From Tetragenococcus koreensis (GTDB lineage Bacteria > Bacillota > Bacilli > Lactobacillales > Enterococcaceae), in assembly GCF_003795145.1 (NCBI RefSeq), contig NZ_CP027786.1, forward strand, positions 1,240,001 through 1,304,000: a stretch of 64,000 nt of DNA, written 5' to 3'. This document shows, one piece after another, positions 3,973 through 38,714 of the stretch. Numbering within the stretch: the stretch's first letter is position 1; each line of letters starts with the position of its first letter. The notes under the pieces are model-generated. The model searched no databases, was not told where the DNA came from, and saw nothing but the letters and a program-made list of their open reading frames with translations. A program made the translations under genes and the position numbers.

Positions 3973-4292
3973 GCTCCTGTTTTAGTAAGTTGAAAATGAT
4001 CTTCTTGTTTTTCAGACAAAATTTTCCAATTTCTTTCTCCATGATTGGATTCTCGGATAAGGTTTTCCTAAACTATTGTCCGTTATCCCGTTTTCGGACA
4101 ATAAATTGTCGAACTTTTATTCGTTAACTGCTATTAAAGAGCACTTAACGACCATTTTGCTTGTTTTTCAGACAAAACTTTTCCATTTCTTTCTCCATGT
4201 TTGGATTCTCGGATAAGATTTTTCTAAACTTTTGTCCATCTTTTCGTTTTTGGATAAAGGATTATCAAACTTTTGTCCGTTATCAGTTATTT
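3973..4292. repeat. 41-bp-period intergenic repeat array 1 (GGAYAA/TTGTCC type)
   Basis: Units begin at 4014, 4055, 4096, (4137), 4170, 4211 and 4252. The steps are 41 bases except for one 33-base step, and the sequence back to 3973 may be a further decayed unit. The better units open with GGATAAG and close 27 bases later with TTGTCC, forming an imperfect hairpin, followed by a 14-base linker such as GTTATCCCGTTTTC. The whole 3-unit block is also repeated at a distance of 156 bases. No ORF covers it. Two further arrays with the same period occur at 25728 and 38437. Confidence 0.8.
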
Positions 4293-4301
4293 ACTTGTCC
4301 A

Positions 4302-4331
4302 CTAGGGAGCTTTAATAAAATTTACACTTAG
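4302..4331. mobile_element. Solo end of an ISLre2-like element (remnant)
   Basis: A 30-base stretch from CTAGGG to TTTACACTTAG closely matches the right inverted repeat of the intact ISLre2 element at 57611-57642. No transposase or opposite end is near, so it looks like a scar or a fragment. A chance match is less likely but possible. Confidence 0.5.
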
Positions 4332-4426
4332 CCCTGACATATAAAGCAATTTATAAAAATTTTTCTAGCGCTTCAAATTCCACTCTATTTATTGAGATAA
4401 ATTAAAATATAGGACTACTCCAAAAG

Positions 4427-4460
4427 AAGCAACTACATTATTTTACGTAGTTGCTTTTTT
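4427..4460 (+). terminator. Orphan Rho-independent terminator
   Basis: A perfect 10-bp stem AAGCAACTAC/GTAGTTGCTT with a 10-base loop precedes a run of six T. No gene is recognised just before it. From the end of the IS1182 transposase to here (about 740 bases) I see only the hairpin, the repeat array and the IS scar. Confidence 0.8.
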
Positions 4461-4519
4461 ATTAGGCAGTTTTAAAGTTTAAAAAACCTATACTATATAA
4501 ACACCACCCCTTTTTTGCA

Positions 4520-4537
4520 TTGTAAGACTTTTGTAAG
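4520..4537 (+). promoter_or_regulatory. Direct repeat TTGTAAG, likely response-regulator site for the yxeA-ABC operon
   Basis: TTGTAAG occurs twice with starts exactly 11 bases apart, one helical turn, about 75 bases before the yxeA start codon. Tandem sites at one-turn spacing are typical for OmpR-type regulators, which usually control BceAB-like exporters. No dedicated regulator gene lies next to this operon. Confidence 0.45.
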
Positions 4538-4611
4538 GTTTACGAAAAAGATTTGAAAGTTTCTCTTATTAAGATAAGTACCATAATCAACTAAAGGATG
4601 GAGGTATATCT

Positions 4612-4977
4612 TTGAAGAAACTTTTAATCGGATTGATCCTGCTTGCTGTTTTCGCTTTTGGCGGACTAAGAGTCGCTGATTCTATCGTAAAAAGCGGCGA
4701 TGATTACTACGTGGAAATTACCAACAAAGGGCATAAGAAAAAGGAAGAAAGTGACAACGGAGCTCCCATAATCTCTTATGATTACACATTAACTGGTTTT
4801 GATGAAACGGGGCAAGAAAAAGAAATGAACTTTACCGCTTTTAAAGAACGACCTTTGATAGCAGGCGCCTATTTAAAAGTGACCTGGAATCAGAAAAGAG
4901 GCGTCACTTCTTATAAGCAAGTCAAAGAAAGTGACATACCAGATAAGGCTAAAGAAAAATTAATTGGAGGAAATTGA
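4612..4977 (+). CDS. YxeA-family protein (DUF1093)
   Basis: Small secreted or membrane-anchored protein of 121 residues. It has an N-terminal hydrophobic segment (about residues 3-20, LLIGLILLAVFAFGGL), then a soluble domain with the YxeA-type pattern YYVEITNKG...YDYTLTGFDETGQEKEMNFTA. In Bacillus, yxeA lies next to the yxdLM bacitracin-type exporter, and the same pairing is seen here. Translation appears to begin at a TTG shortly after GGAGG. The stop codon lies a few bases before the ABC ATPase start, so this is the first gene of a three-gene operon. Molecular function is unknown. Confidence 0.85.
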   Translation: MKKLLIGLILLAVFAFGGLRVADSIVKSGDDYYVEITNKGHKKKEESDNGAPIISYDYTLTGFDETGQEKEMNFTAFKERPLIAGAYLKVTWNQKRGVTSYKQVKESDIPDKAKEKLIGGN

Positions 4978-4978
4978 T

Positions 4979-5731
4979 ATGGAAAAAATTGTAGAAGCTC
5001 AAAATGTAAAAAAAGTTTACGGCAAAGAACAAGGAGAACAAACTGAAGCGTTAAAAAAACTTTCTTTTGCTGTAGAAAAAGGCGAATTTATCGGTATTAT
5101 GGGTCCTTCCGGTTCCGGAAAATCAACCTTATTAAATTTACTAGCAACGCTTGATAACCCAACGGATGGCACGATCACAATCAACGGAAATGATGTCACA
5201 AAATTAAAGGGCAATCAAGTAGCCGACTTTCGTAGCAAACAAATAGGTTTTATTTTTCAAGAGTTTAATTTATTGGAAAACTTAACCGCTTCTGAAAATA
5301 TCGCAGTACCGCTTTCGCTTCAAGGTGTAAAGCCAAAGGAAATTAAAAGTCGAGTAAAACAAATAGCACAGCGTTTATCCATCGATTCCATTTTAAAAAA
5401 ATATCCAGCCGAGATTTCCGGTGGTCAAAAACAGCGTGTCGCAGCTGCCCGTGCTTTAGTTACTCAACCTGCTATTTTATTAGGAGATGAACCAACGGGT
5501 GCACTTGATTCGCAAAGTTCACGCGATTTGTTAGATACCATGAAAGAATTAAATCAAAACGACCAGATTTCAATTTTACTTGTAACGCATGATCCTTTCT
5601 CTGCTAGTTATTGTCAACGAATTTTGTTTATCCAAGATGGCATGCTCCAACAAGAAGTAAAACGAGAAGATCAGAGTCGGGAAAGCTTTTATAAACAAAT
5701 ACTAACCATTTTAGGTACATTAGAACAATAG
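4979..5731 (+). CDS. BceA/YxdL-like ABC transporter ATP-binding protein
   Basis: Cytoplasmic ATPase of 250 residues that powers the FtsX-type permease encoded next. Visible motifs are Walker A GPSGSGKST, Q-loop FIFQEFNLL, signature SGGQKQR, Walker B AILLGDEPTGALD and the H-loop VTHD. The ATG chosen follows GGAGG by nine bases; an earlier in-frame start would overlap yxeA. BceA-type modules sense and remove cell-wall antibiotics such as bacitracin or antimicrobial peptides. That role is inferred from family and neighbours. Confidence 0.92.
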   Translation: MEKIVEAQNVKKVYGKEQGEQTEALKKLSFAVEKGEFIGIMGPSGSGKSTLLNLLATLDNPTDGTITINGNDVTKLKGNQVADFRSKQIGFIFQEFNLLENLTASENIAVPLSLQGVKPKEIKSRVKQIAQRLSIDSILKKYPAEISGGQKQRVAAARALVTQPAILLGDEPTGALDSQSSRDLLDTMKELNQNDQISILLVTHDPFSASYCQRILFIQDGMLQQEVKREDQSRESFYKQILTILGTLEQ

Positions 5732-5744
5732 GAGGTGGACAAAA

Positions 5745-7541
5745 ATGCTTTTAAAATTATCACTAACCGGGCTTAAGGGACGTTGGCGTGATTACGCAGT
5801 CTTATTTTCTGGGCTGACGATTGCCGCTGGGATATTTTACATGTTTCAATCGATGGCCAGTAACGATGACTTTCTAACAAATAATTCGACTGTTGCCATG
5901 ACGGGCATGATTTTCCAATTAGGCTCTGTTTTGCTGGCCATTATCACCTTAGTTTATATCTTATACGCGAATTCGTTTTTAATGAGTATGCGGCAAAAAG
6001 ACTATGCGATGTTTATGATGTTAGGCGCGAAACAGCGCAAAATCGGACTTCTGATCTTTATTGAAACATTTACGATTGGACTTTTGGCTACGCTTCTAGG
6101 TTCCGCGATAGGCATAGGGTTAACATCTATTGTAAGTCAATTGTTAACCAATCAATTAGATATTCAGGTAACCCATTTTTCACCTTTTAACCCTAAAGCG
6201 TTACTGATTACATTAATCTTCTTTACAATACTGTTTTTATTGGCGGCCACTATCAATGCCTCTTCTATTGTTAGAAAACCAATTTTGTCTTTATTAAAAG
6301 CAAATGAAACGCCAGCGAAATCTCGACGCAAACCAATTATGCTATTATTAGAAGCCATCGGCGGCATCCTTTTACTAGCGGTTGGCTATTATATGATGGA
6401 TAATGTCGCTACTTTTGCTTTATTAGCACTAGTTGTTGCCCTAATCACGATTGTATTAGGAACCTATTTCGTTTTCCATTCAGTCATGATTTTTATTTTA
6501 AATCTGCTGAAACGTTCGGATCGCTTAAGGTTAAAAAAATTAAATAACTTCACACTGTCTCAGTTAAGTTTTCGTATCCAAGACTACACGAAAATGCTTT
6601 CCATGGTAGCAATGATTTTTGCTTTAGCGTTAGGCGCACTGACAGTTGGACTAGGTTTTCGCAATGAGATCCCTAAAATGACAGACCAAGCATCAACTTA
6701 TGACTTGTTTTTAAATAACGCCCAAGATGCCGATCAAAAACAAGTGGAGGGCTTAAATCCAACCTTAAATGTTAGCTACCAAATAAAAGAAGATGAAGAT
6801 ACGGTCTACTTTAACCAAGAACAATTTGATAGCGAACCTTTAAACGCGATTTATTATGATACTACGCCGCAAAAAACCACTTATTCTGGTGAACAACTAG
6901 CCAATGATGAAGCAAAAATGGACAATTTACGCGTTTTATTGTTACCTGAACAACGGGAAAAAGAATTGGCGATGTTGCCAGAAGATCAATTTGCAGGACT
7001 TAACCATCAAACAAGCAGTTTACAAGTCGTTCAAGTAAACGACTTTATGACTCAAAAAGATGCGATCAAAAAAATTGTTGACGAAAATGTGCAGCAAAAT
7101 CCTTCTTTAACACAAGACCAATTGGCGATGAACCAAAAGTATGATATTTATACAATCTTCAACGAAACATTTTCCGGCTTCGAATTCATGGGATTTTTCC
7201 TCGGGATCGCTTTTTTGACAATGCTTGCCAGTTGCTTAATGTTTAAGATCCTATCAGGTGCAGCAAGTGACGTCGCTCGTTACGATATGTTAAATAAGAT
7301 CGGTACCCGAATGAGTCTGCTAAAAAAATCAATTAGACGTGAAATTGCTGTATTATTTTTAGCTCCAGGAGTTTTAGGTGCTATTCATGTGTTGTTTGGA
7401 CTCAAAATGTTTACCGGTTTGCTTAGCGAACCTTATACTGGAATCTGGCTACCTTTTCTCATTTTCTTTGTCTTATATTTTCTCTATTATTTACTGACTA
7501 TCTGGTTGTATACAGATATCGTTTTAAAAAAGAATAAATAA
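5745..7541 (+). CDS. BceB/YxdM-like FtsX-type ABC permease
   Basis: Membrane protein of 598 residues. Four transmembrane helices occur in the first 170 residues, then further pairs, and a large extracytoplasmic domain at about residues 305-472 precedes the last helices. This one-chain permease with a big sensor-like loop is the BceB plan, used for antimicrobial peptide resistance together with a BceS-type kinase. No short BceS-type kinase is encoded in the window; the kinase at 10.4-11.7 kb has its own long sensor domain. The ATG lies 13 bases after the ATPase stop with its own AGGAGG. Confidence 0.9.
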   Translation: MLLKLSLTGLKGRWRDYAVLFSGLTIAAGIFYMFQSMASNDDFLTNNSTVAMTGMIFQLGSVLLAIITLVYILYANSFLMSMRQKDYAMFMMLGAKQRKIGLLIFIETFTIGLLATLLGSAIGIGLTSIVSQLLTNQLDIQVTHFSPFNPKALLITLIFFTILFLLAATINASSIVRKPILSLLKANETPAKSRRKPIMLLLEAIGGILLLAVGYYMMDNVATFALLALVVALITIVLGTYFVFHSVMIFILNLLKRSDRLRLKKLNNFTLSQLSFRIQDYTKMLSMVAMIFALALGALTVGLGFRNEIPKMTDQASTYDLFLNNAQDADQKQVEGLNPTLNVSYQIKEDEDTVYFNQEQFDSEPLNAIYYDTTPQKTTYSGEQLANDEAKMDNLRVLLLPEQREKELAMLPEDQFAGLNHQTSSLQVVQVNDFMTQKDAIKKIVDENVQQNPSLTQDQLAMNQKYDIYTIFNETFSGFEFMGFFLGIAFLTMLASCLMFKILSGAASDVARYDMLNKIGTRMSLLKKSIRREIAVLFLAPGVLGAIHVLFGLKMFTGLLSEPYTGIWLPFLIFFVLYFLYYLLTIWLYTDIVLKKNK

Positions 7542-7557
7542 TTGTTGGTTTAGGACA

Positions 7558-7592
7558 ACGAAAAAAGCTCCCTTTAAAGGGGCTTTTTTCGT
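7558..7592 (+). terminator. Terminator of the yxeA-ABC operon
   Basis: AAAAAAGCTCC and GGGGCTTTTTT form an 11-bp stem with a 7-base loop directly after the permease stop. Its symmetric A/T flanks allow termination in both directions. Confidence 0.85.
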
Positions 7593-7873
7593 TTGCTAAC
7601 CAATGTAGGCTGTAGTCTTATTAATAGACAAATATTTAAGTTTTGTTTATGATAAAAATAAGCCCTAATCAATAGCATCACTCTAAAAATATATATTACT
7701 ATCACCGTTAAATAGCTTATTGGCATTAAGAAAACTAGTAGGTTAGTAAACTTCATCAGTAAACAAGTGCAGCACAACTTACCGCACAACAAGTAATCCA
7801 CTCTATATAACATAACATGGCAACGATATTTGAACGCGCTAACAATTCCAACTCAAGAGAGGTGGTGAAGTTT
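7593..7873. other. Intergenic stretch without a supported gene
   Basis: AT-rich sequence between the ABC operon terminator and the DUF6199 gene. The open frame on the minus strand here has no ribosome-binding site and reads through the terminator, so I do not count it. The promoter of the next gene must lie here, but no clear -35/-10 pair stands out. Confidence 0.5.
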
Positions 7874-8095
7874 ATGAATTTAACATACCTTTTTATTATC
7901 ACAATAGCTGTTATTGTACTTATCTTTGGTTTTATTAATATATTTTCGCCTAAAACAGGCTGGTGGCTAGAATTAGGTTGGCGGATAAAAGATGCTGAAC
8001 CCTCCAATTCTGCTTTAATTATGAATCGTGTAAGCGGCGTTTTCATGATTATTATTGCTAGTATAATAATATACAAAATTATTCAGCTAATGTAG
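7874..8095 (+). CDS. DUF6199-family small membrane protein
   Basis: A 73-residue protein with two hydrophobic helices (about residues 3-20 and 50-70) and between them the pattern SPKTGWWLELGWRIKDAEPSNSAL, which is characteristic of DUF6199. The chosen ATG follows AGAGGTGGTG; an upstream in-frame ATG would add 19 polar residues without a ribosome-binding site. The function of the family is unknown. It is a single gene ending at a strong terminator that was later used as an IS target. Confidence 0.75.
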   Translation: MNLTYLFIITIAVIVLIFGFINIFSPKTGWWLELGWRIKDAEPSNSALIMNRVSGVFMIIIASIIIYKIIQLM

Positions 8096-8110
8096 TGAAT
8101 AAATATAGCC

Positions 8111-8153
8111 AAAAGCTCATTGCCAACGTAATTAGCAATGAGCTTTTTTTACT
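8111..8153. terminator. Bidirectional terminator, interrupted by an ISL3 element
   Basis: A 12-bp stem AAAGCTCATTGC/GCAATGAGCTTT has T-runs on both strands. It lies between the DUF6199 gene and, before the IS arrived, the convergent PepSY gene. The ISL3 element sits in its T-tract and duplicated TTTTTACT. Confidence 0.85.
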
Positions 8154-9681
8154 GGCTCTTTGTCAACTGGTGTTGGTAAAGAAAACTCGATAAATAAAGG
8201 AAGCAGTTAGGCGCTATGGTCTAGCTGCTTTTTTTAGTTTGTATAGGTAAGGGTCCGGGTTGGAAATACTTTCCTCGGTATAAAAAGATCCGTTGCCGAA
8301 AGTTCTCAAAGCTATGGAAACCATAAGCGACTCGTTTTAGGACTTTAATATGATTATTTAAACCTTCTAAAGGACCATTAGAGTAAGGCACCGTTAAAGC
8401 CAGCCGGATCTCTTGTCGATACTTGCGAAAGGTCTTGACTACGGGCTGAAACGGGTCAGGAAGCTGAGACAAATCGGTTTTTAATAATTGATCCAAACGT
8501 TCGATATCTTGCTTATGAAATGCAGAAAGGAACGATTGATAGATTTTATAGCCTTGTCTAAGCGTGGAATGATAACTTAATAAGCGGTCGACAATCTCTT
8601 GCTCGGTTAAATGATCCCGAAAACTAGGCCGCCAATATCGTTTTTTGTAATCCAGTGCCCAAGCTTTTTTCTGTAGAAGTTTCCAATATTTTTTGAGGTG
8701 CTTATATTCTTTTTGCCGACGGTTAAAGGTGTTCATCACTTGTTTCCGTTGTTGTTGGAAAGCTCGCCCAATATGTTGGCTCATATGGAAACGATCAATG
8801 ACTAACTGCGCATTAGGAAAAAGGGCTTTAACTAAGGAAGCATACGGACTGTAAAAATCCGAAACGACATAGTGCACCTTGGCTCTTTCCTCTCTAGGAT
8901 AACGAGCGAAAAAGGCTTCTAAATGAGGCAGTTGTCGATTAGCGACAATCTCTAAGAGTTGCCGCGTTTTCCCATTCATCATAATAAAACTCATGGCACC
9001 AGAAACTCGTTTGACCGATTGAAATTCATCAAAACAAAGTACTTCCGGTAAGGAAGTATTGGGGGTTAGCTGTTTAGGTTGAAAACTATGCAGCACACGT
9101 AAAACTGTCGTCGGCGAAACATGCTTCAACCGGGCGACCATTGACATCGACAAGGGTTGAGCTAATTTTTCTGCAATGGCGAGTTTGACGCGTCGAGCGA
9201 TCGAACAATGACGGTCCGCGACACTGGTTTCGGCGATAGAAGTTTTCCCGCAAGTTTTACAACGAAAACGTTGTTTCTTCATTTTAAGTAAGGTTTTGTA
9301 TTCACTCACATCGTTAAGCTGAATCGTCACTTCCTTGAATCCCCATTTCATTAAACAAGCCGTATCTTCTTCGCCACAGTGAAAACAGGCTTGTGGACGA
9401 TAAGAAAGCTGACCATAAAAGACAAAACAAATGACGCCGTTAATGGCTTCTTTTTGGAAACAATCTTCTTCAAAAGTCAGATTTAAGTCTAGGATATCTA
9501 GGATTTCTTTAGTATAATGAGAGATGGACATCTTGAAACACTCCTTTGGATATTTGTTTGGTACCTTTATTCTACGGGTTTTCAAGGTGTCTGTTTTCTA
9601 TTTTGCTCAGAAAATATAAAAAAACTAGTATGGGCTACAAGAAAATCATTCTTGTCTACCAACACTAGAAATTATAGAGCC
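8154..9681. mobile_element. ISL3-family insertion sequence, intact, 1528 bp
   Basis: The two ends begin with GGCTCT and share the inner GTGTTGGTA block as imperfect inverted repeats of about 27 bases. The element is flanked on both sides by the same 8 bases, TTTTTACT (8146-8153 and 9682-9689), the target duplication size usual for ISL3. It contains one transposase gene and a hairpin terminator (AAGCAGTTAG...CTAGCTGCTT) at its left end. It looks recent, since the duplication is perfect. Confidence 0.95.
8221..9531 (-). CDS. ISL3-family transposase
   Basis: DDE transposase of 436 residues that binds the element ends and catalyses cut-and-paste movement. The N-terminus has paired CxxC zinc-binding motifs (CFHCG and CKTCG). 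The catalytic core shows FDEFQ, the aspartate of VVSDFYSPY and the C-terminal glutamate region GPLEGLNNHIKVLKR. The ATG at MSISHYTKEIL follows AAAGGAG at good distance; a start 18 codons upstream lacks one. The gene is full length and probably active. Confidence 0.95.
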   Translation of the reverse strand: MSISHYTKEILDILDLNLTFEEDCFQKEAINGVICFVFYGQLSYRPQACFHCGEEDTACLMKWGFKEVTIQLNDVSEYKTLLKMKKQRFRCKTCGKTSIAETSVADRHCSIARRVKLAIAEKLAQPLSMSMVARLKHVSPTTVLRVLHSFQPKQLTPNTSLPEVLCFDEFQSVKRVSGAMSFIMMNGKTRQLLEIVANRQLPHLEAFFARYPREERAKVHYVVSDFYSPYASLVKALFPNAQLVIDRFHMSQHIGRAFQQQRKQVMNTFNRRQKEYKHLKKYWKLLQKKAWALDYKKRYWRPSFRDHLTEQEIVDRLLSYHSTLRQGYKIYQSFLSAFHKQDIERLDQLLKTDLSQLPDPFQPVVKTFRKYRQEIRLALTVPYSNGPLEGLNNHIKVLKRVAYGFHSFENFRQRIFLYRGKYFQPGPLPIQTKKSS

Positions 9682-9689
9682 TTTTTACT

Positions 9690-10259: not shown

Positions 10260-10352
10260 TTTGCATTCCTTCCTTTCCTTTTGCTATCTTCATACTAACA
10301 AGGATTACATTTAGGAAAATCAAAATACAAAATAAATTAGATGAAAATTTCT

Positions 10353-21974: not shown

Positions 21975-22257
21975 ATTAAACACGTTGAAGAAGAAAGTAA
22001 ATTCATAAATTTTCCACAGAGAGTCTCGTTTGCTGAAAGAGATGAAAAACATGGATTGAAAATGGCTTTGGAGTGCATGCAGTGAGTTTTAAAATAACTG
22101 CATACGGAAGTTTCCGTTATCAAAATATAAGTATAGTTTATGAAAACCGTATTGTACTTAGTAAGGTGTCAACCGTGAGATTGGCATAAAAAAAGGTGGT
22201 AACATGTATACATATGCATCCTTAAAAGACCCAGGTCTTTTAAGGATGCTTTTTTTT
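21975..22257 (+). promoter_or_regulatory. T-box riboswitch of metQ, probably tRNA-Met-responsive
   Basis: Leader elements in order are a purine-rich start GAAGAAGAAAGTAAAT, an AGAGAG...GCTGAAAGAGAT stem I region, and AUG triplets as candidate specifier. The AGGTGGTAACATG antiterminator lies at 22193-22206. A 16-bp terminator stem GCATCCTTAAAAGACC/GGTCTTTTAAGGATGC with eight T ends at 22257. Uncharged tRNA would stabilise the antiterminator and open metQ and the following hydrolase. Met as effector is inferred from the gene and the AUG codons. Confidence 0.85.
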
Positions 22258-25727: not shown

Positions 25728-25932
25728 CTAGAGGAAGTCAAGCTGAGGAACTCTAGAAAGTAGCAAAGCTAGAGGTAGTTCAGCTGAAGAGCTCTAGAAA
25801 ATAACAAAACTAGAGGTAATTCAGCTGAAGAGCTCTAGAAAATAACAAAACTAGAGGTAATTCAGCTGAAGAGCTCTAGAAAGTAGCAAAACTAGAGGAA
25901 GTTCAGCTGAAAAGCTCTAGAAAACTGAAATA
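25728..25932. repeat. 41-bp-period intergenic repeat array 2 (CTAGAG/CTCTAG type)
   Basis: Five units start at 25728, 25769, 25810, 25851 and 25892, exactly 41 bases each. Every unit is a 29-base inverted repeat from CTAGAGG to CTCTAG with an inner TCAGCTGA palindrome, followed by a 12-base linker AAAATAACAAAA or AAAGTAGCAAAA. Units 2-4 are nearly identical and the outer two more diverged. It lies between the S66 gene and the DJ-1 gene; nothing else is recognised in that 465-base gap. Confidence 0.95.
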
Positions 25933-26004: not shown

Positions 26005-26362
26005 ATGATCAACGTAAATTTTTTAGTATTTGATGATTTTGAATCTTTGGATCTATTTGGTGTGGTGGAAATTTTTGGGCGTTTGCAAAATAACTACGTC
26101 TTAAACTATTACTCTATGGAAGGCGGATTGATTAAAAGTAGACAGAATGTAGAAATGATGACTCAACCAATTACCCGTTTAATGAATGACGGGATCTTAA
26201 TCGTACCTGGTGGTGCAGGAACTAGAACGTTGGTCAATGACGAAGAGTGGATAGGAAAACTAAAACGGGTTAGTCTAGTAGCTGCTAATGTTCTAACAAT
26301 TTGCACTGGGTCTGCTTTATTAGCAAAAACAGGGCTTTTAAATAATAAAAAAGCAACAAGTA
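26005..26362 (+). pseudogene. DJ-1/PfpI-family protein gene, 5' part, interrupted by a group II intron
   Basis: N-terminal 119 codons of a DJ-1/PfpI-like glutamine-amidotransferase-fold protein. They include the opening NFLVFDDFESLDLFG, LIVPGGAGT and the nucleophile-elbow cysteine in LTICTGSALLAKTGLL near residue 100. The frame breaks at the intron insertion; joining to 28251 restores a 195-residue protein. Because the intron lies antisense, the mRNA cannot splice it out, so the gene is inactive unless the intron is lost. Confidence 0.9.
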
Positions 26363-28250
26363 ATAGGGTAGAGGGGAAATAAAATTTCCGCCCCTCCCGT
26401 CGCACCGTACGTACGGTTCTCGTATACGGCGCTACGTTTGTATTGTTTTCACACTTTATTTAGATAGTAAGTTAAGGGATCGACCAATCCAGGTCTATCC
26501 TTTTTCTTTATGGCTAAAACTTTCGGACTCAGCGTAAAATTGACAACGTGCATTCCACATTTCCTATACCAACCTAATCTAGAATTAGCGACCTTATAAA
26601 TGTCTTCTTTCTTGAAATGACACTTGAATAGTCGATTCAATTGTTGTAAATTCGTATAGATTCGTTGCGGAAGTTTCCATTGTTTTATGATAATGACACG
26701 GACTTTATGTCGTAACCATTGACCAAACTTCGCTAGATAGGTTTTCATACTACCGATACGGTAGTAATTGATCCAGCCCCTTACAATTTGGTTCAATTTC
26801 GTAAATGTCACAGTTAAAGGTCGCGACACGGCATGTTTCCTTTTAAGAATTTCTTTGGTTTTGTCATAGAGCTTTGTTTTACTGACTTTGCTCGGTTTAC
26901 ACTGCCAACCCTTTTGGTTCTTCCAAAAGGTAAATCCTAAAAATTTACTTTGTGTCGGTCGTACGACCTTGGTTTTCGTGACATTCACTTGCAAGAATAA
27001 CTTTCTTTCTATCCAATCCGTAATAGATTTCATCACACGGTTGGCTGCCATCTCACTTTTGACAAAAATATCCGTATCATCCGCGTACCGAACAAAATGC
27101 AGCCCTCTTGCTTCTAATTCTTTATCCAGTTTGTCCAGATAAATATTCGCTAAAATTGGACTTAACGGGCCTCCTTGCGGAACCCCGGTTTCGTTCGGAC
27201 TAACGAAGCCATTCTCCATAATACCTGCTTTTAAGAAAACACGTATTAAATGAAGGGTCTCTCTATCTTTGACCCGTTCTCTGAGGGTCGAGATTAATTT
27301 ATCATGGTGAACGGTATCAAAATATTTCTCAATATCCATATCGATGAGCCATTCATAGCCTTCATTCAAGTAATCAAGTACTTTTTCAATTGCTTGATGA
27401 GCACTTCGATTCGGACGAAAACCATAACTGGTTTCACTGAAGTGGACATCGAAGATGCGACTTAATTGTTGCGCTGTTGCTTGTTGCACCACACGGTCTA
27501 CCACAGTTGGAATCCCTAAGGGTCTTTGTTTCCCATCGGATTTAGGGATATAAACCCTTTTGACCGCCTTTGGTCGGTAGGTCATCGAACGAATCTCTTG
27601 AACAAGATCTCGCCCCTGTTGATAAAAATAATGGTCGAGTTCATCAACTGTCATTTCATCCACGCCCGGGGCCCCTTTATTCTTTTTGACCTGTTCGATG
27701 GCTTGTGTCATATTTTGATAACTCGTAATCTTTTCAATTAATCTCATGCGCTGTTCCTCCTCTAGGCGTAAATTTATCCAAAACCGCCCCCACTACCTTT
27801 CCCATCAATAGTTACGTTCTATTGTTCTAGGGTATTCTCGTTTTCGGACTATTTGGACATTTCCTTCTAGCGATTCACACTATACAAACATTCGGCCCTT
27901 CACTACATGAAATGCAATAGCTACTATGGCCTCAGCTGACTTCTTACGACAAACCTTTTTCGACCGTTCGCAAACGTTCGTAAGACCTCCCAGGGTAAGA
28001 CATTTATCTTTCTCTCCACAACCTCTTGATTTACTGTCTTGGTTTTACGTTTACCTTTTGGACTTTAGCTTGTTATGCAGCCTTATCCACCATTTAGCCT
28101 CATCAAGTTCCTGTGCGTAGGCTCAAGAGATTTGCGTCACCACTTCCTTCCCCCCATCATCACTGATTTCGGCTTGTGGCTCGCTACACTTGGCGGTAAC
28201 TACCCGTGACTGGACTTTCACCAGCTAGATAAATGCCATGCCTGGCACAC
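26363..28250 (-). mobile_element. Bacterial group II intron, 1888 bp, antisense to its host gene
   Basis: On the minus strand the intron begins GTGTGCCAGG and ends CTACCCTAT. Domain V is seen as CCGTATAC-GAGA-like loop and ACCGTACGTACGGT near 26405-26430, with domain VI after it. The boundaries are fixed by host-gene continuity: removing the intron gives an unbroken DJ-1 frame without duplication. About 500 bases before the RT gene hold domains I-IV. The intron can splice only from a minus-strand transcript. Confidence 0.92.
26449..27747 (-). CDS. Group II intron reverse transcriptase/maturase (LtrA-type)
   Basis: Protein of 432 residues that binds the intron RNA, aids splicing and copies it into DNA. 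RT blocks are clear: KNKGAPGVDEMTVDEL, GKQRPLGIPTVVDRVVQQA, the SYGFRPNRSAHQA motif, GVPQGGPLSPILANI and the catalytic RYADD near residue 220. Domain X contains GWINYYRIG. No HNH endonuclease domain follows, so mobility is of the endonuclease-free kind that uses nascent DNA strands at replication forks. Confidence 0.96.
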   Translation of the reverse strand: MRLIEKITSYQNMTQAIEQVKKNKGAPGVDEMTVDELDHYFYQQGRDLVQEIRSMTYRPKAVKRVYIPKSDGKQRPLGIPTVVDRVVQQATAQQLSRIFDVHFSETSYGFRPNRSAHQAIEKVLDYLNEGYEWLIDMDIEKYFDTVHHDKLISTLRERVKDRETLHLIRVFLKAGIMENGFVSPNETGVPQGGPLSPILANIYLDKLDKELEARGLHFVRYADDTDIFVKSEMAANRVMKSITDWIERKLFLQVNVTKTKVVRPTQSKFLGFTFWKNQKGWQCKPSKVSKTKLYDKTKEILKRKHAVSRPLTVTFTKLNQIVRGWINYYRIGSMKTYLAKFGQWLRHKVRVIIIKQWKLPQRIYTNLQQLNRLFKCHFKKEDIYKVANSRLGWYRKCGMHVVNFTLSPKVLAIKKKDRPGLVDPLTYYLNKV

Positions 28251-30540: not shown

Positions 30541-30550
30541 TAAGCTCGTG

Positions 30551-30637
30551 TGCTATAATAAAATTGTGAAACGAGATTATCACACAATTGAGGCACCAAA
30601 AAAGCCACCCTATGTCAGTAGGATGGCTTTTTTCTTA
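30551..30637 (+). ncRNA. RNA II antitoxin of the Fst/par-type system
   Basis: An extended -10 TGCTATAAT (30551-30559) starts a short RNA of about 70 nt. It contains ACGAGATTAT and CACACAATTG, which repeat sequence at the toxin start (antisense contact points like DRa/DRb of par), then ends at the hairpin AAAAAAGCCACCCTA/TAGGATGGCTTTTTT. Layout and order match RNA II of plasmid pAD1 par and its chromosomal relatives. Confidence 0.85.
30598..30637. terminator. Shared bidirectional terminator of the Fst toxin-antitoxin pair
   Basis: A 15-base stem AAAAAAGCCACCCTA/TAGGATGGCTTTTTT with one mismatch and a small loop ends both RNA I and RNA II, which therefore are complementary in this hairpin. It provides the initial kissing contact in par-type loci. 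Confidence 0.88.
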
Positions 30638-30693
30638 GCACTGTTGTAATTTCCAAATGCTAAGGCTAGAATAGCAACTGCTTCGATCACTTA

Positions 30694-30780
30694 TTAACCA
30701 TCTAGCCAATGATCAACTAGTACAATGACTAGACCCACAAAAAGCGGGGCAATGATTAACGAGATTATTTTTTCACACAA
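30694..30780 (-). CDS. Fst-family type I toxin
   Basis: A 28-residue membrane peptide: short start MCEKII, hydrophobic helix with the family core APLFVGLVIVL and tail DHWLDG. It starts at TTG behind AAAGGGG, and a 5' hairpin CCCTAG-AAAGGGG would hide that ribosome-binding site, as in RNA I of par. Overproduced Fst peptides damage the membrane and cell division. The matching antitoxin RNA is encoded downstream in opposite direction. Confidence 0.9.
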   Translation of the reverse strand: MCEKIISLIIAPLFVGLVIVLVDHWLDG

Positions 30781-30943
30781 TCGAATCACCCCTTTCTAGG
30801 GCAGTTGCCAAAAATATTATGACATATTTTATTAATTAGTATCACAAAAAAGAAAGTGCTTTAAATGTTTAACAATAAAAAATACTAAAACTCTTATTAA
30901 CAAAAGTTTTAGCGTATTTTTATTTTGCTTATTCATTTTTTAG

Positions 30944-32649: not shown

Positions 32650-32663
32650 TTTCTTCCTCCTAA

Positions 32664-32687: not shown

Positions 32688-32841
32688 ATTTACGAACATT
32701 ATCTTATGCTTTTTGAAAGTATTAGTCAACTGTTTCGTTTTCAATTAAAAATAAACTTTCAAGAAGGTTTTAAAGCAAGCACAATATCTTTCTCATCAGT
32801 TTTTGTGAATATGGTATAGTATTAAAAAAAGAGGTGATTTG

Positions 32842-33306: not shown

Positions 33307-33380
33307 TATTGTTTTAACTAGTAGTGCTATCGCATCCCAACAAGCATGCTTTTGCTTTATAACCCTTTTTACTCGATGGT

Positions 33381-33420
33381 TTGACAACCCATTTAATCAA
33401 TGGTTTAATTGATTGAACGA
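33381..33420 (+). promoter_or_regulatory. Promoter and operator of the arsR-type gene
   Basis: TTGACA (33381-33386) and TTTAAT (33404-33409) are 17 bases apart. The 24-base operator-like motif (33397-33420) covers the -10 box and the likely start point, the classical place for autorepression. The same motif stands before the MDR reductase operon. Confidence 0.75.
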
Positions 33421-33442
33421 ATGAACCAAAGAGGAGAGCATC

Positions 33443-33805
33443 ATGGAAAAGCAAGATTTTCAACAGTTAAAAAACGAATTTGCAAATATTAGTGAGTTTC
33501 TTTTAGCTTTAGGAGATGAAAAACGACAAATTATTATTATGGCCTTGTTAGAACAAGAATCTTGTGAAGGGCTACGGGTAACAGATTTGACTGAACTTAC
33601 TCACCTCTCTAGACCAGCAGTCTCCCATCACTTAAATATTTTAAAACAAGCTAATATTGTTGCTATTCGTAGTGAAGGGACCAAAAATTATTATTATTTT
33701 TCTAACATGATTGATAGTGTTAAAGATATGAAAAAATTAAACGACCACCTATTCACTTTGTTGGAAGAAAAGGAGAACGATATTAAAAATAATTTACATG
33801 AATGA
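33443..33805 (+). CDS. ArsR-family transcriptional regulator
   Basis: A 120-residue winged-helix repressor: ALGDEKRQIIIMALLEQ, then VTDLTELTHLSRPAVSHHLNILKQANIV, with the wing SEGTKNYYYF. The ELTHL segment lacks the ELCVC metal-binding cysteines of ArsR/SmtB, so it is probably a metal-independent, perhaps redox- or small-molecule-responsive member; one Cys lies at ESCEG. It likely represses itself and the reductase-Hsp31 operon. Its stop overlaps a possible upstream start of the HAD gene. Confidence 0.9.
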   Translation: MEKQDFQQLKNEFANISEFLLALGDEKRQIIIMALLEQESCEGLRVTDLTELTHLSRPAVSHHLNILKQANIVAIRSEGTKNYYYFSNMIDSVKDMKKLNDHLFTLLEEKENDIKNNLHE

Positions 33806-33855
33806 ATAATCTTTTCAATTACACAGTTTTAAAAAAACTTGTTAAGGAGGCACCA

Positions 33856-34659
33856 ATGATTAAAGCAATTGCAGCAGATATGGATGGTACTTTTTTAAAT
33901 TCAAATAACACTTATGATAAAGCTCGATTTGAAGCTATCTATAAGCAACTCGTTGATCAAAACATAAAATTTATTGTAGCCAGTGGGAATCAATATGCGC
34001 AGTTAAAATCTTTCTTCCCAGAAAAAGATGGTACGATCACTTATATTTCCGAAAATGGCGCGATTATTGGCCAATCTGGACAATTACAAAGCATCGCTTC
34101 TTTTCCCCATGAATTTATCCAAGAAGTACTTGATGACTTAATTTATCGTACAAACAATAACGAGTTTATCTTGTGTGGCGCAAAAAGTGCTTATCTGTTA
34201 AAAGCAGCTAGTTCCCATTTCAAAAATTTTGCAAAAAAATATTATTATAAATTGGCAGAAGTCGATACTCTTAATCCTTTACCTGACGATACATTAGTCA
34301 AAATTGCCTTAGACGTAGGAATAGAAAAAGCTGAGTTAATCGTTGATCAATTAAATAAAAAATATGCTCATCAGCTGTTAGCTGTCTCCAGCGGACATGG
34401 AAGTATTGACATTACTATTCCAGAGATCAATAAAGGGAGCACGCTTGCAAAACTACTAAACAAATGGTCTATCCAACCGAATGAACTATTAGCTTTCGGT
34501 GATGCAAACAATGATCTTGAAATGATTGCTTTGACCAAACATAGTTATGCGATGCAAAACAGCACCTCAAACAAAGTCCGGCAAACCGCTCAACATCAAG
34601 CGCCTTCTAACGATGAATCCGGTGTATTGTCAGTCATTGAATCGTATTTATTTGAATAA
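33856..34659 (+). CDS. Cof-type HAD-IIB phosphatase
   Basis: Cytoplasmic sugar-phosphate phosphatase of 267 residues. The catalytic motif I is AADMDGTFLNS (nucleophile and acid aspartates), motif II is IVASGN, and the motif III/IV end is KGSTLAKLL followed by LAFGDANNDLEMI. The C2 cap between identifies the Cof/YidA-YbjI class. The ATG after GGAGG is used; an in-frame ATG 18 codons earlier overlaps the ArsR stop and might be used by coupling. Substrates are probably phosphorylated sugars or FMN. Confidence 0.92.
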   Translation: MIKAIAADMDGTFLNSNNTYDKARFEAIYKQLVDQNIKFIVASGNQYAQLKSFFPEKDGTITYISENGAIIGQSGQLQSIASFPHEFIQEVLDDLIYRTNNNEFILCGAKSAYLLKAASSHFKNFAKKYYYKLAEVDTLNPLPDDTLVKIALDVGIEKAELIVDQLNKKYAHQLLAVSSGHGSIDITIPEINKGSTLAKLLNKWSIQPNELLAFGDANNDLEMIALTKHSYAMQNSTSNKVRQTAQHQAPSNDESGVLSVIESYLFE

Positions 34660-34699
34660 GCGAAAAAAAATAGTGCTATGACATAAGTCCATTTGATAA

Positions 34700-34828
34700 T
34701 AAAATATCCGAACTATAGAGAGATTGCTCCTGCGATTACTCGTCGCATGAAAAAACTGTGCTCCTGCGATTACTCGTCGCAAATCCACAACGATTAGCAG
34801 ATCTCAATAATATAGTTCGGATATTTTT
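34700..34828. repeat. Long hairpin with inner 23-bp direct repeat (terminator-like element)
   Basis: The outer arms AAAATATCCGAACTATA and TATAGTTCGGATATTTTT pair perfectly. Inside, TGCTCCTGCGATTACTCG followed by TCGCA occurs twice, 34 bases apart, each able to form its own TGCGA/TCGCA hairpin. It lies between convergent genes (HAD phosphatase and TspO), so it probably serves as a bidirectional terminator, but the inner repeat is unusual. Confidence 0.7.
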
Positions 34829-34863
34829 ATCTTGTTTTTACTTATGTTATAGCTCCTTATTTT

Positions 34864-35331
34864 TTAATTTAAAATTGCTAAACCCAAACATAGATATCCG
34901 GCATAAAAACACCATACAAGATAAGGAACGAATAAATAACTTGCCGCTTTATTGATGTAATAAAATACGCGGATACAGGCAATGATCATCACAATTAAAC
35001 CGATAATTACAAGGCTTGCTATCCAGTAATGATTACCACCAAAGAAAAGAATACTCCAAGAAAAATTCAGTATTTGTTGTATCGCAAAAAGAGTAATCGC
35101 TGAAATTTTCAATTTATTGGCAACTTTGGAGATAATCAGTAAAAATAAGGCCGTCCCCATCAACGCATACAAAATTGTCCAAACCGTACCAATGATGTTG
35201 CCGGGCGGTGACAAAGGCGGTTTTTGCAATTCTTGATAAACACTTTGAATATCTCCTGCAAACAATCCTGAGATAATTCCTGTTAACTCAATTCCTACGA
35301 CACTTATTAACCAAATGACCCACTTTCTCAT
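34864..35331 (-). CDS. TspO/MBR-family membrane protein
   Basis: A 155-residue protein with five transmembrane helices. QELQKPPLSPPGNIIGTVWTI is the signature loop between helices 1 and 2, and QQILNFSWSILFF the helix 3 signature. Bacterial TspO binds porphyrins and may degrade or transport them under stress; the physiological role in Firmicutes is unsettled. The opening MRKWVIWLISVVGIEL is helix 1. Single gene. Confidence 0.92.
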   Translation of the reverse strand: MRKWVIWLISVVGIELTGIISGLFAGDIQSVYQELQKPPLSPPGNIIGTVWTILYALMGTALFLLIISKVANKLKISAITLFAIQQILNFSWSILFFGGNHYWIASLVIIGLIVMIIACIRVFYYINKAASYLFVPYLVWCFYAGYLCLGLAILN

Positions 35332-35371
35332 CCTATCGTCCTCCTCAAAAATTTAAATACATTTCAACTGT

Positions 35372-36007
35372 TTAAAACCGATAGAGCATATGATACATGT
35401 CAAAATCACTTGTTTGACTCTGTTCAATCACTGCATATCCAGCACGCGAATAGATCTCTTTATTCTTTTTATCTGCAGTATATAAATACACAGCTTCAAA
35501 ATCCTTTGCATAACGTTGATGAACTTCATTTAAAAATCGTTTACCTATACCTTGACCTTGATATTTTGCAGATACAGCAATCGCTGATAACGTCACGTGT
35601 TTTTCTTTTATCGGTTGGGACAACCTCATAGCTTTAGATATAGCAACGGCATTTTTATATTTAACCTTTGTCACTAAGGGAAAAAGGTTAAATATCTTGG
35701 GAACAACAATTTTTAATAAACTTGCAAAAGAGCCCTTAATCGTTTTTTTAATAACCGCAATTCCTACTATAGCGTCATTGCTTTTAGCAATGATAATATC
35801 ATGACCCCTTGCAAGATAAACTCTGGCGTTCAGCAAAGTAGCTTCATAGAACTGTTTTTCTGTCTGCTTATGGTCAAAATTATAGGTATAAGCAGTGATC
35901 GCTTCTGTTTTGAATGTTTCCGCAAACAACTGCATCGCTTGTATGAATTCATCGTTGTCTTCTTTAAGCATGTGAAAAGTTACTTGATTCTTAGTCAAAT
36001 TTCTCAT
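35372..36007 (-). CDS. GNAT-family N-acetyltransferase
   Basis: Acetyltransferase of 211 residues. AIAVSAKYQGQGIGKRFLNEV is the acetyl-CoA-binding motif A with the Q-x-x-G-x-G loop, and AVYLYTADKKNKEIYSRAGYAV follows as motif B. The pattern resembles the large group of small-molecule GNATs with an N-terminal extension. The paralogue at about 45 kb has similar layout. It lies 21 bases behind the UvrA-like gene and could be co-transcribed with it. Confidence 0.88.
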   Translation of the reverse strand: MRNLTKNQVTFHMLKEDNDEFIQAMQLFAETFKTEAITAYTYNFDHKQTEKQFYEATLLNARVYLARGHDIIIAKSNDAIVGIAVIKKTIKGSFASLLKIVVPKIFNLFPLVTKVKYKNAVAISKAMRLSQPIKEKHVTLSAIAVSAKYQGQGIGKRFLNEVHQRYAKDFEAVYLYTADKKNKEIYSRAGYAVIEQSQTSDFDMYHMLYRF

Positions 36008-36028
36008 CCTTTTTTCAGTTGAATACCT

Positions 36029-38272
36029 TCATTGTGTTAAATACGGGGCTGTTACTGTCTGATCTGCTTTTGCTAATTCTTCCACGGTTCCTGAAAAAGT
36101 AAGATAGCCACCCTTACTGCCGCCTTCAGGACCAATCTCGATAACCCAGTCGGCTCGTTTAATCACACTAATGTGATGTTCCAAAAGAATGATACTGTTT
36201 CCTGTTTCAACCATTTGTTCAAATAAATCTAAAAGTTGTTGAATATCGTCTAAATGTAAGCCATCGGTTGGCTCATCTAATAGATAAATTGTTCCCTTGC
36301 GGTGAAGGTTATCCGCTAGTTTTAGGCGTTGTAACTCCCCGCCTGATAATGTAGATAACGATTGGTTTAATTTTAAGTAGCCTAATCCGACATCCAAAAG
36401 CTGTTTTAATTCCTCTGCAAATGATTGGTCTTTAAAAAACGCAAAACTTTCATTCACGTTCATTTCCAACACATCCACAATGGTTTTTCCTTGGTATAAA
36501 TATTGGGTAGCTTCTTCATTATAGCGAGTTCCATGACACAATTCACACACCGTCGTTACGTCCTCCATGAAAGACATATCAGAAACGATAACTCCTTTTC
36601 CTTTACATCTAGGACAAGCGCCTTTTGAATTATAACTAAATAATGCAGGACTTACGTTGTTTTCTTTGGCAAATAACGAGCGAATCTTATCAAAAATATT
36701 CAGATAGGTCATTGGCGTAGAACGTAAATTAACACCAATACTTTTTTGCGAAATATAAACCAATTCTTGTTCTTGTTGCACAATTTCTTGATAAATAACA
36801 CTGGCTAAAGAAGATTTTCCTGAGCCAGCTACTCCACAAATAACTGTCAGCACACCTAATGGAATATCAACGGAAAGATTTTTTAGGTTATGAAGATCCG
36901 CATTTTTGACTGCTAATGTGCTTTTTGACTTTCTTGGTGCCGTATTTAATGGTATTTTTTCTTGTAGTGCTCGGCTGGTGATCGTATTTGATTGTAAAAA
37001 CTTATCATATGGACCAGCAAATTGAATCTCTCCACCATCTTCCCCTGCTTTAGGTCCTAAATCAACAATATAATCCGCCATTTTAATGAGTTGCGGATGG
37101 TGTTCGACTAAAATCACCGTATTACCTTTATTTTTTATTGCAAGTAGTGCTTGACTGACGCGTTCAATATCTTGTGGATGCAAGCCAGCACTGGGCTCAT
37201 CTAAAATGTACATAATATCATTTAATGAACTATTAATATATTTGGCTATTTTTATTCGTTGCGCTTCGCCGCCTGATAATGTGCCCGTCGCTCTTTCCAG
37301 TGTTAAATAGGATAAACCGATATCAATTAATGCTTGGACGCGTAACATAATTTCTGATTTTACATTGACCGCTAAAGGATCAGTAACCGCAGCAACAAAT
37401 TCTTTTAATTGCTCTAACGATAAATTTACAACATCCGCAATATTTTTATCCATAATCTTACAACTTCTGACTCTTTCGTTCACTCGACTGCCATGACAAT
37501 CTGGACATTCTTTTACTGTTACAAAACGATCCAGTTGCTTTTGATGCCGGCGTCCTTCATCAGAATGAATAATACTTCTTTGCACCCGTGGAATGATCCC
37601 TTCATACAAAGCGGTATGTGGCCATTCAGGCGGTGCATTTTTAATTTGTTGCTGGGGCGCGTAAAACAATAAGTCTTGTTCTTCTGGCGTGTAGTCCGCA
37701 ATTTTCTTATCTAAATCAAATAAGCCACTATCCGCATAACGTTTCCAGCGCCATTTTCCTTTATGAAACGTCGGAAAGTCGATAGGGTCTTCGTTTAACG
37801 ATTTATTAAAATCAACCAACTGATGAAGATGAATTTCTGTTACTTTCCCAAGACCATCACAAGTTGGGCACTTACCGTCTGGATGATTAAATGAAAACGT
37901 ATCTGAATAACCAATAAAAGGTTTGCCAACACGCGAAAATAATAGCCGCAAAAAAGTATAGATATCCGTATATGTTCCCACGGTCGAACGAGAATTGGCC
38001 GAGACTTTCTTTTGTTCGATCATAATCGATACGGGCAAATTTTCGATTTTTTCTACATCCGGCCGTCCGTATTTAGGTAGATACCTTTGTGTATAGCTAC
38101 TAAAGGTATCGTTTAATTCTCTTCTTGACTCTGCTGCTAAAGTATCAAAAACTAGCGAGGACTTTCCTGAACCAGAAACTCCAGTTACAACAGACAATTG
38201 ATGCTTAGGAATTTTTACCGTGACGTCTTTTAAGTTATTTTGTTTAACATGTTTCATTTTAATATATTCCAT
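36029..38272 (-). CDS. UvrA paralogue (UvrA2-like excinuclease ATPase)
   Basis: ABC ATPase of 747 residues with two nucleotide-binding domains, shorter than the roughly 940-residue housekeeping UvrA. Walker A motifs GVSGSGKSSLVF and GVAGSGKSSLAS, two LSGGEAQR/LSGGELQR signatures, and zinc-finger pairs CPTCDG/CPDCHG and CPRCKG/CELCHG are visible. The UvrB-binding domain seems reduced, as in UvrA2 or drug-resistance paralogues, which help tolerate DNA-binding drugs. The ATG after GGAGGG is used; the TTG five codons upstream overlaps this site. Confidence 0.92.
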   Translation of the reverse strand: MEYIKMKHVKQNNLKDVTVKIPKHQLSVVTGVSGSGKSSLVFDTLAAESRRELNDTFSSYTQRYLPKYGRPDVEKIENLPVSIMIEQKKVSANSRSTVGTYTDIYTFLRLLFSRVGKPFIGYSDTFSFNHPDGKCPTCDGLGKVTEIHLHQLVDFNKSLNEDPIDFPTFHKGKWRWKRYADSGLFDLDKKIADYTPEEQDLLFYAPQQQIKNAPPEWPHTALYEGIIPRVQRSIIHSDEGRRHQKQLDRFVTVKECPDCHGSRVNERVRSCKIMDKNIADVVNLSLEQLKEFVAAVTDPLAVNVKSEIMLRVQALIDIGLSYLTLERATGTLSGGEAQRIKIAKYINSSLNDIMYILDEPSAGLHPQDIERVSQALLAIKNKGNTVILVEHHPQLIKMADYIVDLGPKAGEDGGEIQFAGPYDKFLQSNTITSRALQEKIPLNTAPRKSKSTLAVKNADLHNLKNLSVDIPLGVLTVICGVAGSGKSSLASVIYQEIVQQEQELVYISQKSIGVNLRSTPMTYLNIFDKIRSLFAKENNVSPALFSYNSKGACPRCKGKGVIVSDMSFMEDVTTVCELCHGTRYNEEATQYLYQGKTIVDVLEMNVNESFAFFKDQSFAEELKQLLDVGLGYLKLNQSLSTLSGGELQRLKLADNLHRKGTIYLLDEPTDGLHLDDIQQLLDLFEQMVETGNSIILLEHHISVIKRADWVIEIGPEGGSKGGYLTFSGTVEELAKADQTVTAPYLTQ

Positions 38273-38362
38273 CGCATAACCCTCCAAATGTAACTATATT
38301 ATAACATGTTTCATCTAAAATTAGTTTTTCCAGCCTTAGAGCTTTAGGTAAAAAGAAGCCAG

Positions 38363-38398
38363 GGGTTACGAAAAAAGTTGTAAAAATTTCGTAACCCT
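38363..38398. terminator. Hairpin upstream of the UvrA-like gene
   Basis: GGGTTACGAAA and TTTCGTAACCC form a perfect 11-bp stem with a 14-base loop. It lies between repeat array 3 and the uvrA-like start and could stop transcription entering from the array side. Confidence 0.55.
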
Positions 38399-38436
38399 TG
38401 ACTTCATTATACTAAGCGTTTCTATCGTCCTCTTTT

Positions 38437-38714
38437 GAGTAAGACTTTGGCCTTTCTTTACTCGTTATTTTATTTTTGAGTAAGACTTTCTTTTTTCCTT
38501 ACTCGTTATCTTATTAATGAGTAAGGTTTTTTTCTTTCTTTACTCATTATTGGCTAATTTTTGTCTTTTTGTACTTTAAAGAGGCGCTTTTGAGGAACGC
38601 TTTACCTTTTTTTTACTCATTATTTCATTTTTGAGTAACGTTTTGCTTTTTTCTTACTCATTATTTCATTTTTGAGTAAGGTTTTCTTTATCCATCTATT
38701 TCAGTATCTCATCA
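38437..38714. repeat. 41-bp-period intergenic repeat array 3 (GAGTAA/TTACTC type)
   Basis: Units begin at 38437, 38478, 38519, (38552, decayed), 38592, 38633 and 38674. The regular steps are 41 bases; the decayed unit breaks the run into steps of 33 and 40. Each good unit is a 27-base imperfect hairpin, GAGTAAG to TTACTC, plus a 14-base linker such as GTTATTTTATTTTT or ATTATTTCATTTTT. The last unit runs into the lipoprotein gene end. The same period and a similar linker are found in array 1. Confidence 0.9.

What the first reader, a model, noticed from the sequence alone, without database searches (positions are those of the whole stretch)
3973..38714. A family of 41-bp dyad arrays with constant architecture but unrelated cores
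Three intergenic arrays within 35 kb share a unit length of exactly 41 bases, a 27-29-base inverted repeat and a 12-14-base AT-rich linker. Arrays 1 and 3 have linkers such as GTTATCC and GTTATTTTATT. Read on the opposite strand, the linker of array 2 is TTTTGTTATTTT, which is similar. The inverted-repeat cores differ (GGAYAA, CTAGAG, GAGTAA), as if arms co-vary within an array while the frame is conserved. Array-specific co-variation with a fixed period suggests selection on structure. I know no described element with this design. It could be a structural-RNA family, a nucleoid-protein platform or a self-amplifying repeat.
Basis: partly seen in the sequence, partly recalled or inferred. Interest (0 to 1): 0.85.

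Follow-up and report, generated by a model that had tools for sequence, protein, structure and literature searches.

The report
Fixed-geometry 41-bp DNA site arrays
Between many genes of the salt-loving food bacterium Tetragenococcus lie arrays of mirror-image DNA sites, spaced 41 bases apart and often in two groups of three whose distance changes in steps of one DNA turn, although the site sequence differs from array to array, which suggests landing platforms for unknown DNA-binding proteins.

Summary
The window is from a Tetragenococcus. All three arrays exist, with 41-bp units. In a sample of the genus, lag 41 is the outstanding intergenic periodicity (54 clusters; other lags mean 0.87, max 5); stretches of ten other genera of the family gave none. 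About ten families, told apart by eye, share the period but differ in core.

New: typical F1, F3, F5 and F9 arrays are three dyads, a gap, three dyads. The trio-to-trio distance is mostly 155 or 165 bp, sometimes 145, ±1: steps of one helical turn. F1 (GGAtAA) and F3 (GAGtAA) align without gaps and differ mainly by a two-base swap made in both arms. Within F3 the arms vary independently, so stem pairing is not what is conserved.

Best reading: phased sites for sequence-specific, probably dimeric DNA-binding protein(s), with families for different specificities. A minority of arrays (some F1 and F2, array 1 among them) lie in elements with one ISLre2-type end. The REP-transposase idea fails. 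Binding protein and function are unknown. Closest kinds: BOX/BrickBuilt elements with tandem modules, BIMEs, the 43-bp parS of plasmid F.

The parts
4014..4122 (+). Array 1, first trio of dyads (family F1, GGAtAA..TTaTCC type), units at 4014, 4055, 4096
4123..4169 (+). Array 1 gap between trios (trio-to-trio distance 156 bp)
4170..4278 (+). Array 1, second trio (units at 4170, 4211, 4252)
4293..4331 (-). End module of array 1 resembling the terminal repeat of ISLre2-family insertion sequences (5 of 24 bases differ from the pattern)
3925..4013 (+). Other flank of the array-1 element, shared with some F1 copies (module with GGGCAAAGA)
   Evidence: read by eye
25728..25920 (+). Array 2, five CTAGAG..CTCTAG dyads at exactly 41 bp (family F2), no trio gap, no ISLre2-type end
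38437..38545 (+). Array 3, first trio (family F3, GAGtAA..TTaCTC), dyads 38437-38463, 38478-38504, 38519-38545
38546..38591 (+). Array 3 gap (trio-to-trio distance 155 bp)
38592..38700 (+). Array 3, second trio, dyads at 38592, 38633, 38674 (right arm of the last one decayed)
57618..57641 (-). Left end of an ISLre2-family insertion sequence, same sequence type as the end module of array 1 (transposase at 56122-57540, - strand)

Best explanation
The arrays are DNA-level platforms: phased series of sites for one or more sequence-specific, probably dimeric, DNA-binding proteins, dispersed between genes through the genus Tetragenococcus. Shown: each 41-bp unit holds an inverted pair of half-sites, 18-25 bp apart by family; units follow at 41 bp (about four turns); typical F1, F3, F5 and F9 arrays have two trios of units whose distance is 145, 155 or 165 bp (plus or minus 1), that is whole-turn steps; cores differ between families, and between F1 and F3 both arms change together, but arms do not track each other between units of F3. 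Inferred: bound units line up on one face of the helix and the two trios contact or bridge; families exist because the binding protein has paralogues or has changed specificity. Some F1 and F2 arrays sit in ISLre2-like non-autonomous elements; the others are gained or lost by a route not identified. Whether the platform serves the host (nucleoid organisation, local silencing or insulation) or mainly an element's own spread is open; I lean to a protein platform that also behaves as a repeat family.
For: Period. Trio layout and 10-bp quantisation: inside 68 array regions the lags that recur most are multiples of 41 and the series 73+41k and 83+41k (lags one base off these, and an 80/121/162/203/244 series, appear in 1-3 regions each, 164 and 123 in 9 and 14). 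Best trio lag in 45 regions: 155 x15, 165 x14, 164 x6 (four units of 41), 156 x3, 166 x2, and 145, 154, 157, 162, 169 once each. Check with a two-unit profile that never saw the gap: among 150 listed of 284 hits in eight genomes, same-strand distances from 125 to 185 bp are 143 x1, 145 x4 (two loci, each read on both strands), 155 x15, 156 x1, 164 x1, 165 x14, 166 x3. Half-site independence in F3: table 21/7/13/5, odds ratio 1.15, p=1; 90.6% of cells paired against 90.9% in shuffles. Between F1 and F3 both arms switch (columns 9/33 and 10/32; 46 cells against 22.0 in shuffles; gapless alignment of 34 two-unit windows). Outside ORFs: 56 of 57 clusters. Enriched in convergent gaps: 17 of 49 array gaps against 43 of 366 other gaps of 150 bp or more (crude gene calls). 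Profile hits 8 of 9 Tetragenococcus and 0 of 96 other family genomes.
Against: No binding protein was found: 432 ORFs from about 17% of this genome form 14 paralogue groups, of which I recognise insertion sequences, group II introns, transport proteins and one response-regulator-like pair, and no large DNA-binding family (mostly by eye); HTH_ParB gives one copy over the cut-off in each of nine genomes; 20 flanking proteins share no Pfam family (one had no hit). The F2 and F4 arrays read show no trio gap and vary in unit number, as an ordinary minisatellite would. Arrays 1-3 fold as RNA better than shuffles (z -2.9 to -4.9, both strands), L022 does not (z about -1.5). In one search two of five covariation measures do not exceed shuffles (385 and 383 of 500 reach them), and inheritance within families inflates the others. 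The 155 and 165 classes may descend from few ancestors; include orthologues and the same locus more than once, so events are fewer than rows.
Confidence: 0.55

Rival explanations
1. Minisatellites inside non-autonomous mobile elements (BOX- or BrickBuilt-like): tandem units multiply by slippage or unequal exchange and spread with the element; no host function. The 41-bp length is inherited from one ancestral unit whose cores drifted.
For: ISLre2-type end near 6 of 11 own-genome F1 and 3 of 4 own-genome F2 loci; presence/absence at orthologous sites; array length differs at an F4 site shared by two T. halophilus genomes, though one side is rearranged; trio 1 resembles trio 2 more than neighbouring units resemble each other in 29 of 37 rows, some of them the same locus, as after segment duplication; F1 and F3 are clearly related.
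Against: Most arrays have no such end: 4 of 54 clusters have one within 350 bp. Slippage does not explain 10-bp quantisation of the trio distance, nor half-site conservation in F1 and F3 with two-arm core switches, nor 41 bp in families with no evident sequence likeness.
Confidence: 0.27
2. Structural RNA or transcribed stem-loop arrays acting in mRNA 3' ends.
For: Inverted repeats fold; arrays favour convergent gaps, i.e. gene ends.
Against: No compensatory change within F3; position 4 of the stem is mispaired in 8 of 24 and 13 of 24 sequences; both strands fold alike; whole-turn spacing is a property of DNA; no Rfam match at the arrays searched.
Confidence: 0.08
3. REP/BIME-type repeats moved by a Y1 (REP-associated) transposase.
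For: Palindromic, intergenic, arrayed repeats.
Against: Y1_Tnp in 70 of 105 genomes, 63 of them without an F1/F3 profile hit, and not found in G007, which has arrays; G000 has one copy, in an IS200/IS605-like context judged by eye.
Confidence: 0.02

Closest known systems
BOX elements of Streptococcus pneumoniae (Croucher et al. 2011, PMC3049150; abstract and one results section read)
   Same: Dispersed small repeats, modular, with an inner module (boxB) that may be absent or repeated; largely confined to few species; some F1 and F2 elements look like A-(B)n-C.
   Different: Here the inner unit comes in many sequence families with one fixed period and trios with whole-turn spacing; most arrays show no ISLre2-type end.
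BrickBuilt MITE of Porphyromonas gingivalis (PMC4596501; passages read)
   Same: Minisatellite inside a MITE, many copies.
   Different: 23-nt unit; no phased trios mentioned in what I read.
parS/sopC of plasmid F (PMC6238139; passages read)
   Same: Twelve 43-bp tandem repeats with ten 16-bp inverted repeats bound by ParB: the nearest known case of a dyad array with a period near four turns that works as a protein platform.
   Different: One locus on a plasmid; here many chromosomal arrays, many cores, and no ParB expansion.
EFAR elements of enterococci (named in one passage of PMC3733652 as MITEs; all else recalled)
   Same: MITE-class repeats in a related genus; variable assembly of sub-sequences (recalled).
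   Different: No EFAR sequence was at hand; relation not tested.
REP/BIME
   Same: Intergenic palindromes in arrays with regular spacing (recalled, and listing).
   Different: No link to Y1 transposase here; different geometry.

Membership tests
BOX-like modular MITE | End modules flanking a repeatable inner module | tested here: inconclusive
   Seen in some F1 copies and in L003-L005; not in array 2, five F2 arrays of other genomes or eight F3 loci (one search tests the ISLre2-type end only)
BOX-like modular MITE | Sequence homology to pneumococcal boxA/B/C | not tested
   No BOX sequence was compared
MITE of ISLre2 | Terminal repeat of the IS at both ends | tested here: not met
   Only one end matches, second end judged by eye
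MITE of ISLre2 | Target-site duplication and empty site | tested here: inconclusive
   Sites without the array exist; one F5 insertion has a possible decayed duplication, 13 of 17 bases by eye; no clean case for an F1 or F2 element was examined
REP/RAYT | Co-occurrence with Y1 transposase | tested here: not met
Structural RNA family | Compensatory base changes within a family | tested here: not met
   (F3 only)
parS-like protein platform | Tandem dyads at a period near whole turns | tested here: met
parS-like protein platform | Cognate binding protein | tested here: inconclusive
   No expanded HTH_ParB family; no candidate in about 17% of the genome
CRISPR array | Identical repeats with unique spacers beside cas genes | tested here: not met
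   Units are contiguous dyads and most of 20 flanking proteins are housekeeping; one array (L097 7770-8087) lies next to a Cas3-like gene, where a separate lag-66-69 signal is seen

The most novel reading that the evidence does not exclude
A genus-wide system of addressable nucleoprotein scaffolds: about ten orthogonal dyad codes, built to one geometry (41-bp dyads, two trios locked in helical phase), read by a family of unknown DNA-binding proteins that changes specificity while the frame stays fixed. At the array-3 site the array carries GAG cores in this species and AGG/GGG-type cores in two others.
Probability: 0.3. Interest if true: 0.9.

Novelty: new variant of a known kind. Interest (0 to 1): 0.72.

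Why it matters
If it is a protein platform, Tetragenococcus offers many natural variants of one nucleoprotein geometry with different recognition cores, so helical-phase rules and specificity switching can be read from sequence and tested. If it is selfish DNA, it is a repeat whose layout respects the helical turn, which would also be new to me. Searches of the open library listed no paper on these repeats among the rows shown; that library lacks most subscription journals.

Tried and rejected
REP/RAYT link: rejected. RNA structure: rejected as the main constraint. ParB expansion: none. A regulator gene beside the arrays: 20 flanking proteins of this genome share no Pfam family. Paralogue search in 432 ORFs from about 17% of the genome: no candidate. 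Terminus-centred placement: the skew puts the terminus near 0.6 Mb and the arrays are not centred there. Core change at the array-3 site: whether by drift with homogenisation or by replacement with another array is not settled. The uniform-null p value printed treats related loci as independent and is not relied on; 8 of 45 rows (lags 162, 164, 169) were dropped before that count. Of 37 two-unit windows listed (F3) went into alignment A1 and 34 into A2; L331:6328, L335:15915 and L053:1717 were left out of A2.
Full report
Identity. The window is bases 1,240,001-1,304,000 of contig 1 of a 2.73-Mb genome. Its uvrA-like protein is 89-91% identical to three Tetragenococcus halophilus records and T. 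solitarius. Contig lengths tie G001 to T. halophilus DSM 20339, G002 to strain Tet1, G003 to subsp. flandriensis and G007 to T. solitarius.

Observation. Arrays 1, 2 and 3 are as described, with exact coordinates. Own-genome searches found further copies: family 2 in three clear places, family 3 in at least eight, family 1 in at least six (copies read).

Is 41 special? A lag scan of intergenic DNA in the window plus 20 evenly spaced stretches of the same genome gave 12 clusters at lag 41 (10 with a wider merging distance); the next were lags 66-68 (3, 6 and 4 clusters); the lag-67 signal lies in L097, which also holds a Cas3-like gene and is read as a CRISPR array. Over seven Tetragenococcus genomes (1.18 Mb, partly chosen around known hits) lag 41 gave 54 clusters against a mean of 0.87 and a maximum of 5 at other lags. 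G008 gave 12 more, from contigs picked in part by hits (13 listed, one all N); G006 gave one weak cluster (two listed, one all N). Control stretches from ten other genera gave none once the all-N stretch L353 was set aside. With no ORF mask, 56 of 57 lag-41 clusters lie outside long ORFs.

Families. Reading the arrays shows about ten cores at the same period: GGAtAA (F1), CTAGAG (F2), GAGtAA (F3), ATTGGnGGCA (F4), TAAGCACA (F5), a TATGGGCTAT type (F6), CAGGACAT (F7), a CCCTTCATTTT type (F8), GGtAATG/GGGAGTG (F9) and GAATAA (F10). The grouping is by eye, and the dyad of F6 is weak. Pooled F3 and F1 units (40 and 18) show conserved half-sites and mostly unconserved linkers; the F2, F4 and F5 pools are small. 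F1 and F3 align over two units without a gap; the main difference is AG to GA in the left arm with CT to TC in the right.

Arms. The finding says arms co-vary within an array. Between F1 and F3 they do: 46 cells with changes on both sides against 22.0 in shuffles, although two of five measures do not exceed shuffles and family inheritance contributes. Within F3 they do not: the variable fourth position is T or G on the left and A or C on the right without association, inside dyads (21, 7, 13, 5; odds ratio 1.15) or across linkers (18, 6, 9, 3; odds ratio 1.0), and the pair-count test agrees. That is what symmetric protein half-sites would do and what a conserved stem would not.

Geometry. F3 arrays read as three dyads, a gap, three dyads, with a few units missing or decayed. 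Across 68 array regions the commonest lags above 82 were multiples of 41 and the series 114/155/196 and 124/165/206. In the 45 regions with a best lag between 145 and 175, 155 and 165 account for 29, and 164 (four units) for six. Some of these rows are the same locus or orthologues. A sequence-only profile of two adjacent units, blind to the gap, was run over 105 genomes of the family: it hit 8 of 9 Tetragenococcus and none of 96 others (strict filters, and 44 candidates scored per genome, so counts are lower bounds). Same-strand distances up to 320 bp between the 150 listed of 284 hits were 145 (4, from two loci on both strands), 155 (15), 156 (1), 164 (1), 165 (14), 166 (3), 143 (1), 186 (1), and 41, 42, 82, 83, 114, 123, 124, 196, 206. 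F1, F3 and F5 each show two classes about ten bases apart. Ten bases are one helical turn. The half-sites within a unit stand 18-25 bp apart depending on family, so the phase argument is about units and trios, not single half-sites.

Mobility. An end like the terminal repeat of ISLre2-family elements, one of which lies in the window (transposase 56122-57540), is found near 6 of 11 own-genome F1 loci, L003-L005 of F2 and the T. halophilus F1 array L238, but not near array 2, five F2 arrays of other genomes, or eight F3 loci; 4 of the 54 clusters have it, 7 of 200 random windows do. In F2 the likeness runs on for about 100 bp, by eye. The other end does not match. The 24-base pattern occurs 29 times in this genome with up to three mismatches; those looked at include insertion sequences and array-bearing elements. 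Orthologous sites often differ in having an array: array 2 is absent at the matching place in G001, G002, G004 and G005, and L289 2417-2678 is absent in G001 with flanks 91-95% identical. At the array-3 site T. solitarius has an array with AGG/GGG-type cores and a 165 layout, flandriensis three such units, T. halophilus one remnant, G004 none evident, while the window has GAG cores and a 155 layout.

Placement. Of 49 gaps with arrays, 17 are convergent, 21 tandem and 11 divergent, against 43, 222 and 101 of 366 other gaps. Gene calls were crude: array 3 is really tandem, between the end of the 38712-39308 gene and the uvrA-like gene.

Mechanism. These facts favour a DNA-binding protein as the thing that fixes the frame. 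No such protein was identified. The step from phased sites to a bridged two-trio complex is inference. The main rival is a mobile minisatellite with no host role; it explains presence/absence and trio duplication but not the quantised distance.

Known kinds. BOX (PMC3049150: abstract and one section read), BrickBuilt (PMC4596501: passages), MITE review (PMC10969869: passages), REP/MITE paper naming EFAR (PMC3733652: one passage), parS of F (PMC6238139: passages), T. halophilus comparative genomics (PMC8249745: 12 of 14 matching places shown; those on repeats concern CRISPR). None of what I read describes this geometry.

Noticed in passing
window 26005-28170: A group II intron (reverse transcriptase 26449-27747, Rfam intron hits) abuts the short DJ-1/PfpI-like frame that follows array 2; the frame may be interrupted by it.
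   Followed up: no
L097 4558-17692 (G000 near 2.46 Mb): Lag-67 repeats in a stretch with a Cas3-like gene (L097:8491-10977), read as a CRISPR locus, with an F1 array next to it.
   Followed up: no
window 3880-3920: A 36-41-base stretch is repeated at seven other genome places at 98-100% identity, next to an IS1182/IS5-like transposase (3069-3683).
   Followed up: no
G000 1.07-1.51 Mb: 10 of 18 listed profile places fall in one 450-kb arc (simulation p 0.007, capped list, arc chosen after the fact); by GC skew it is not at the terminus.
   Followed up: partly
L331 6442-6523 (G008): A dyad that seems hybrid, with a GGA-type left arm and a CTC-type right arm.
   Followed up: no
window 30629-30809: Match to the Enterococcus sRNA family RefB11; rli28-type sRNA at 1863-2036; T-box leader at 21976-22226.
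   Followed up: no
G006: The one Tetragenococcus genome of nine with no F1/F3 profile hit; like G007 it has no Y1 transposase hit.
   Followed up: partly
L023 and L025: Two F3 arrays lie beside genes for a DNA topoisomerase and a 37-kD nucleoid-associated protein; may be chance.
   Followed up: no
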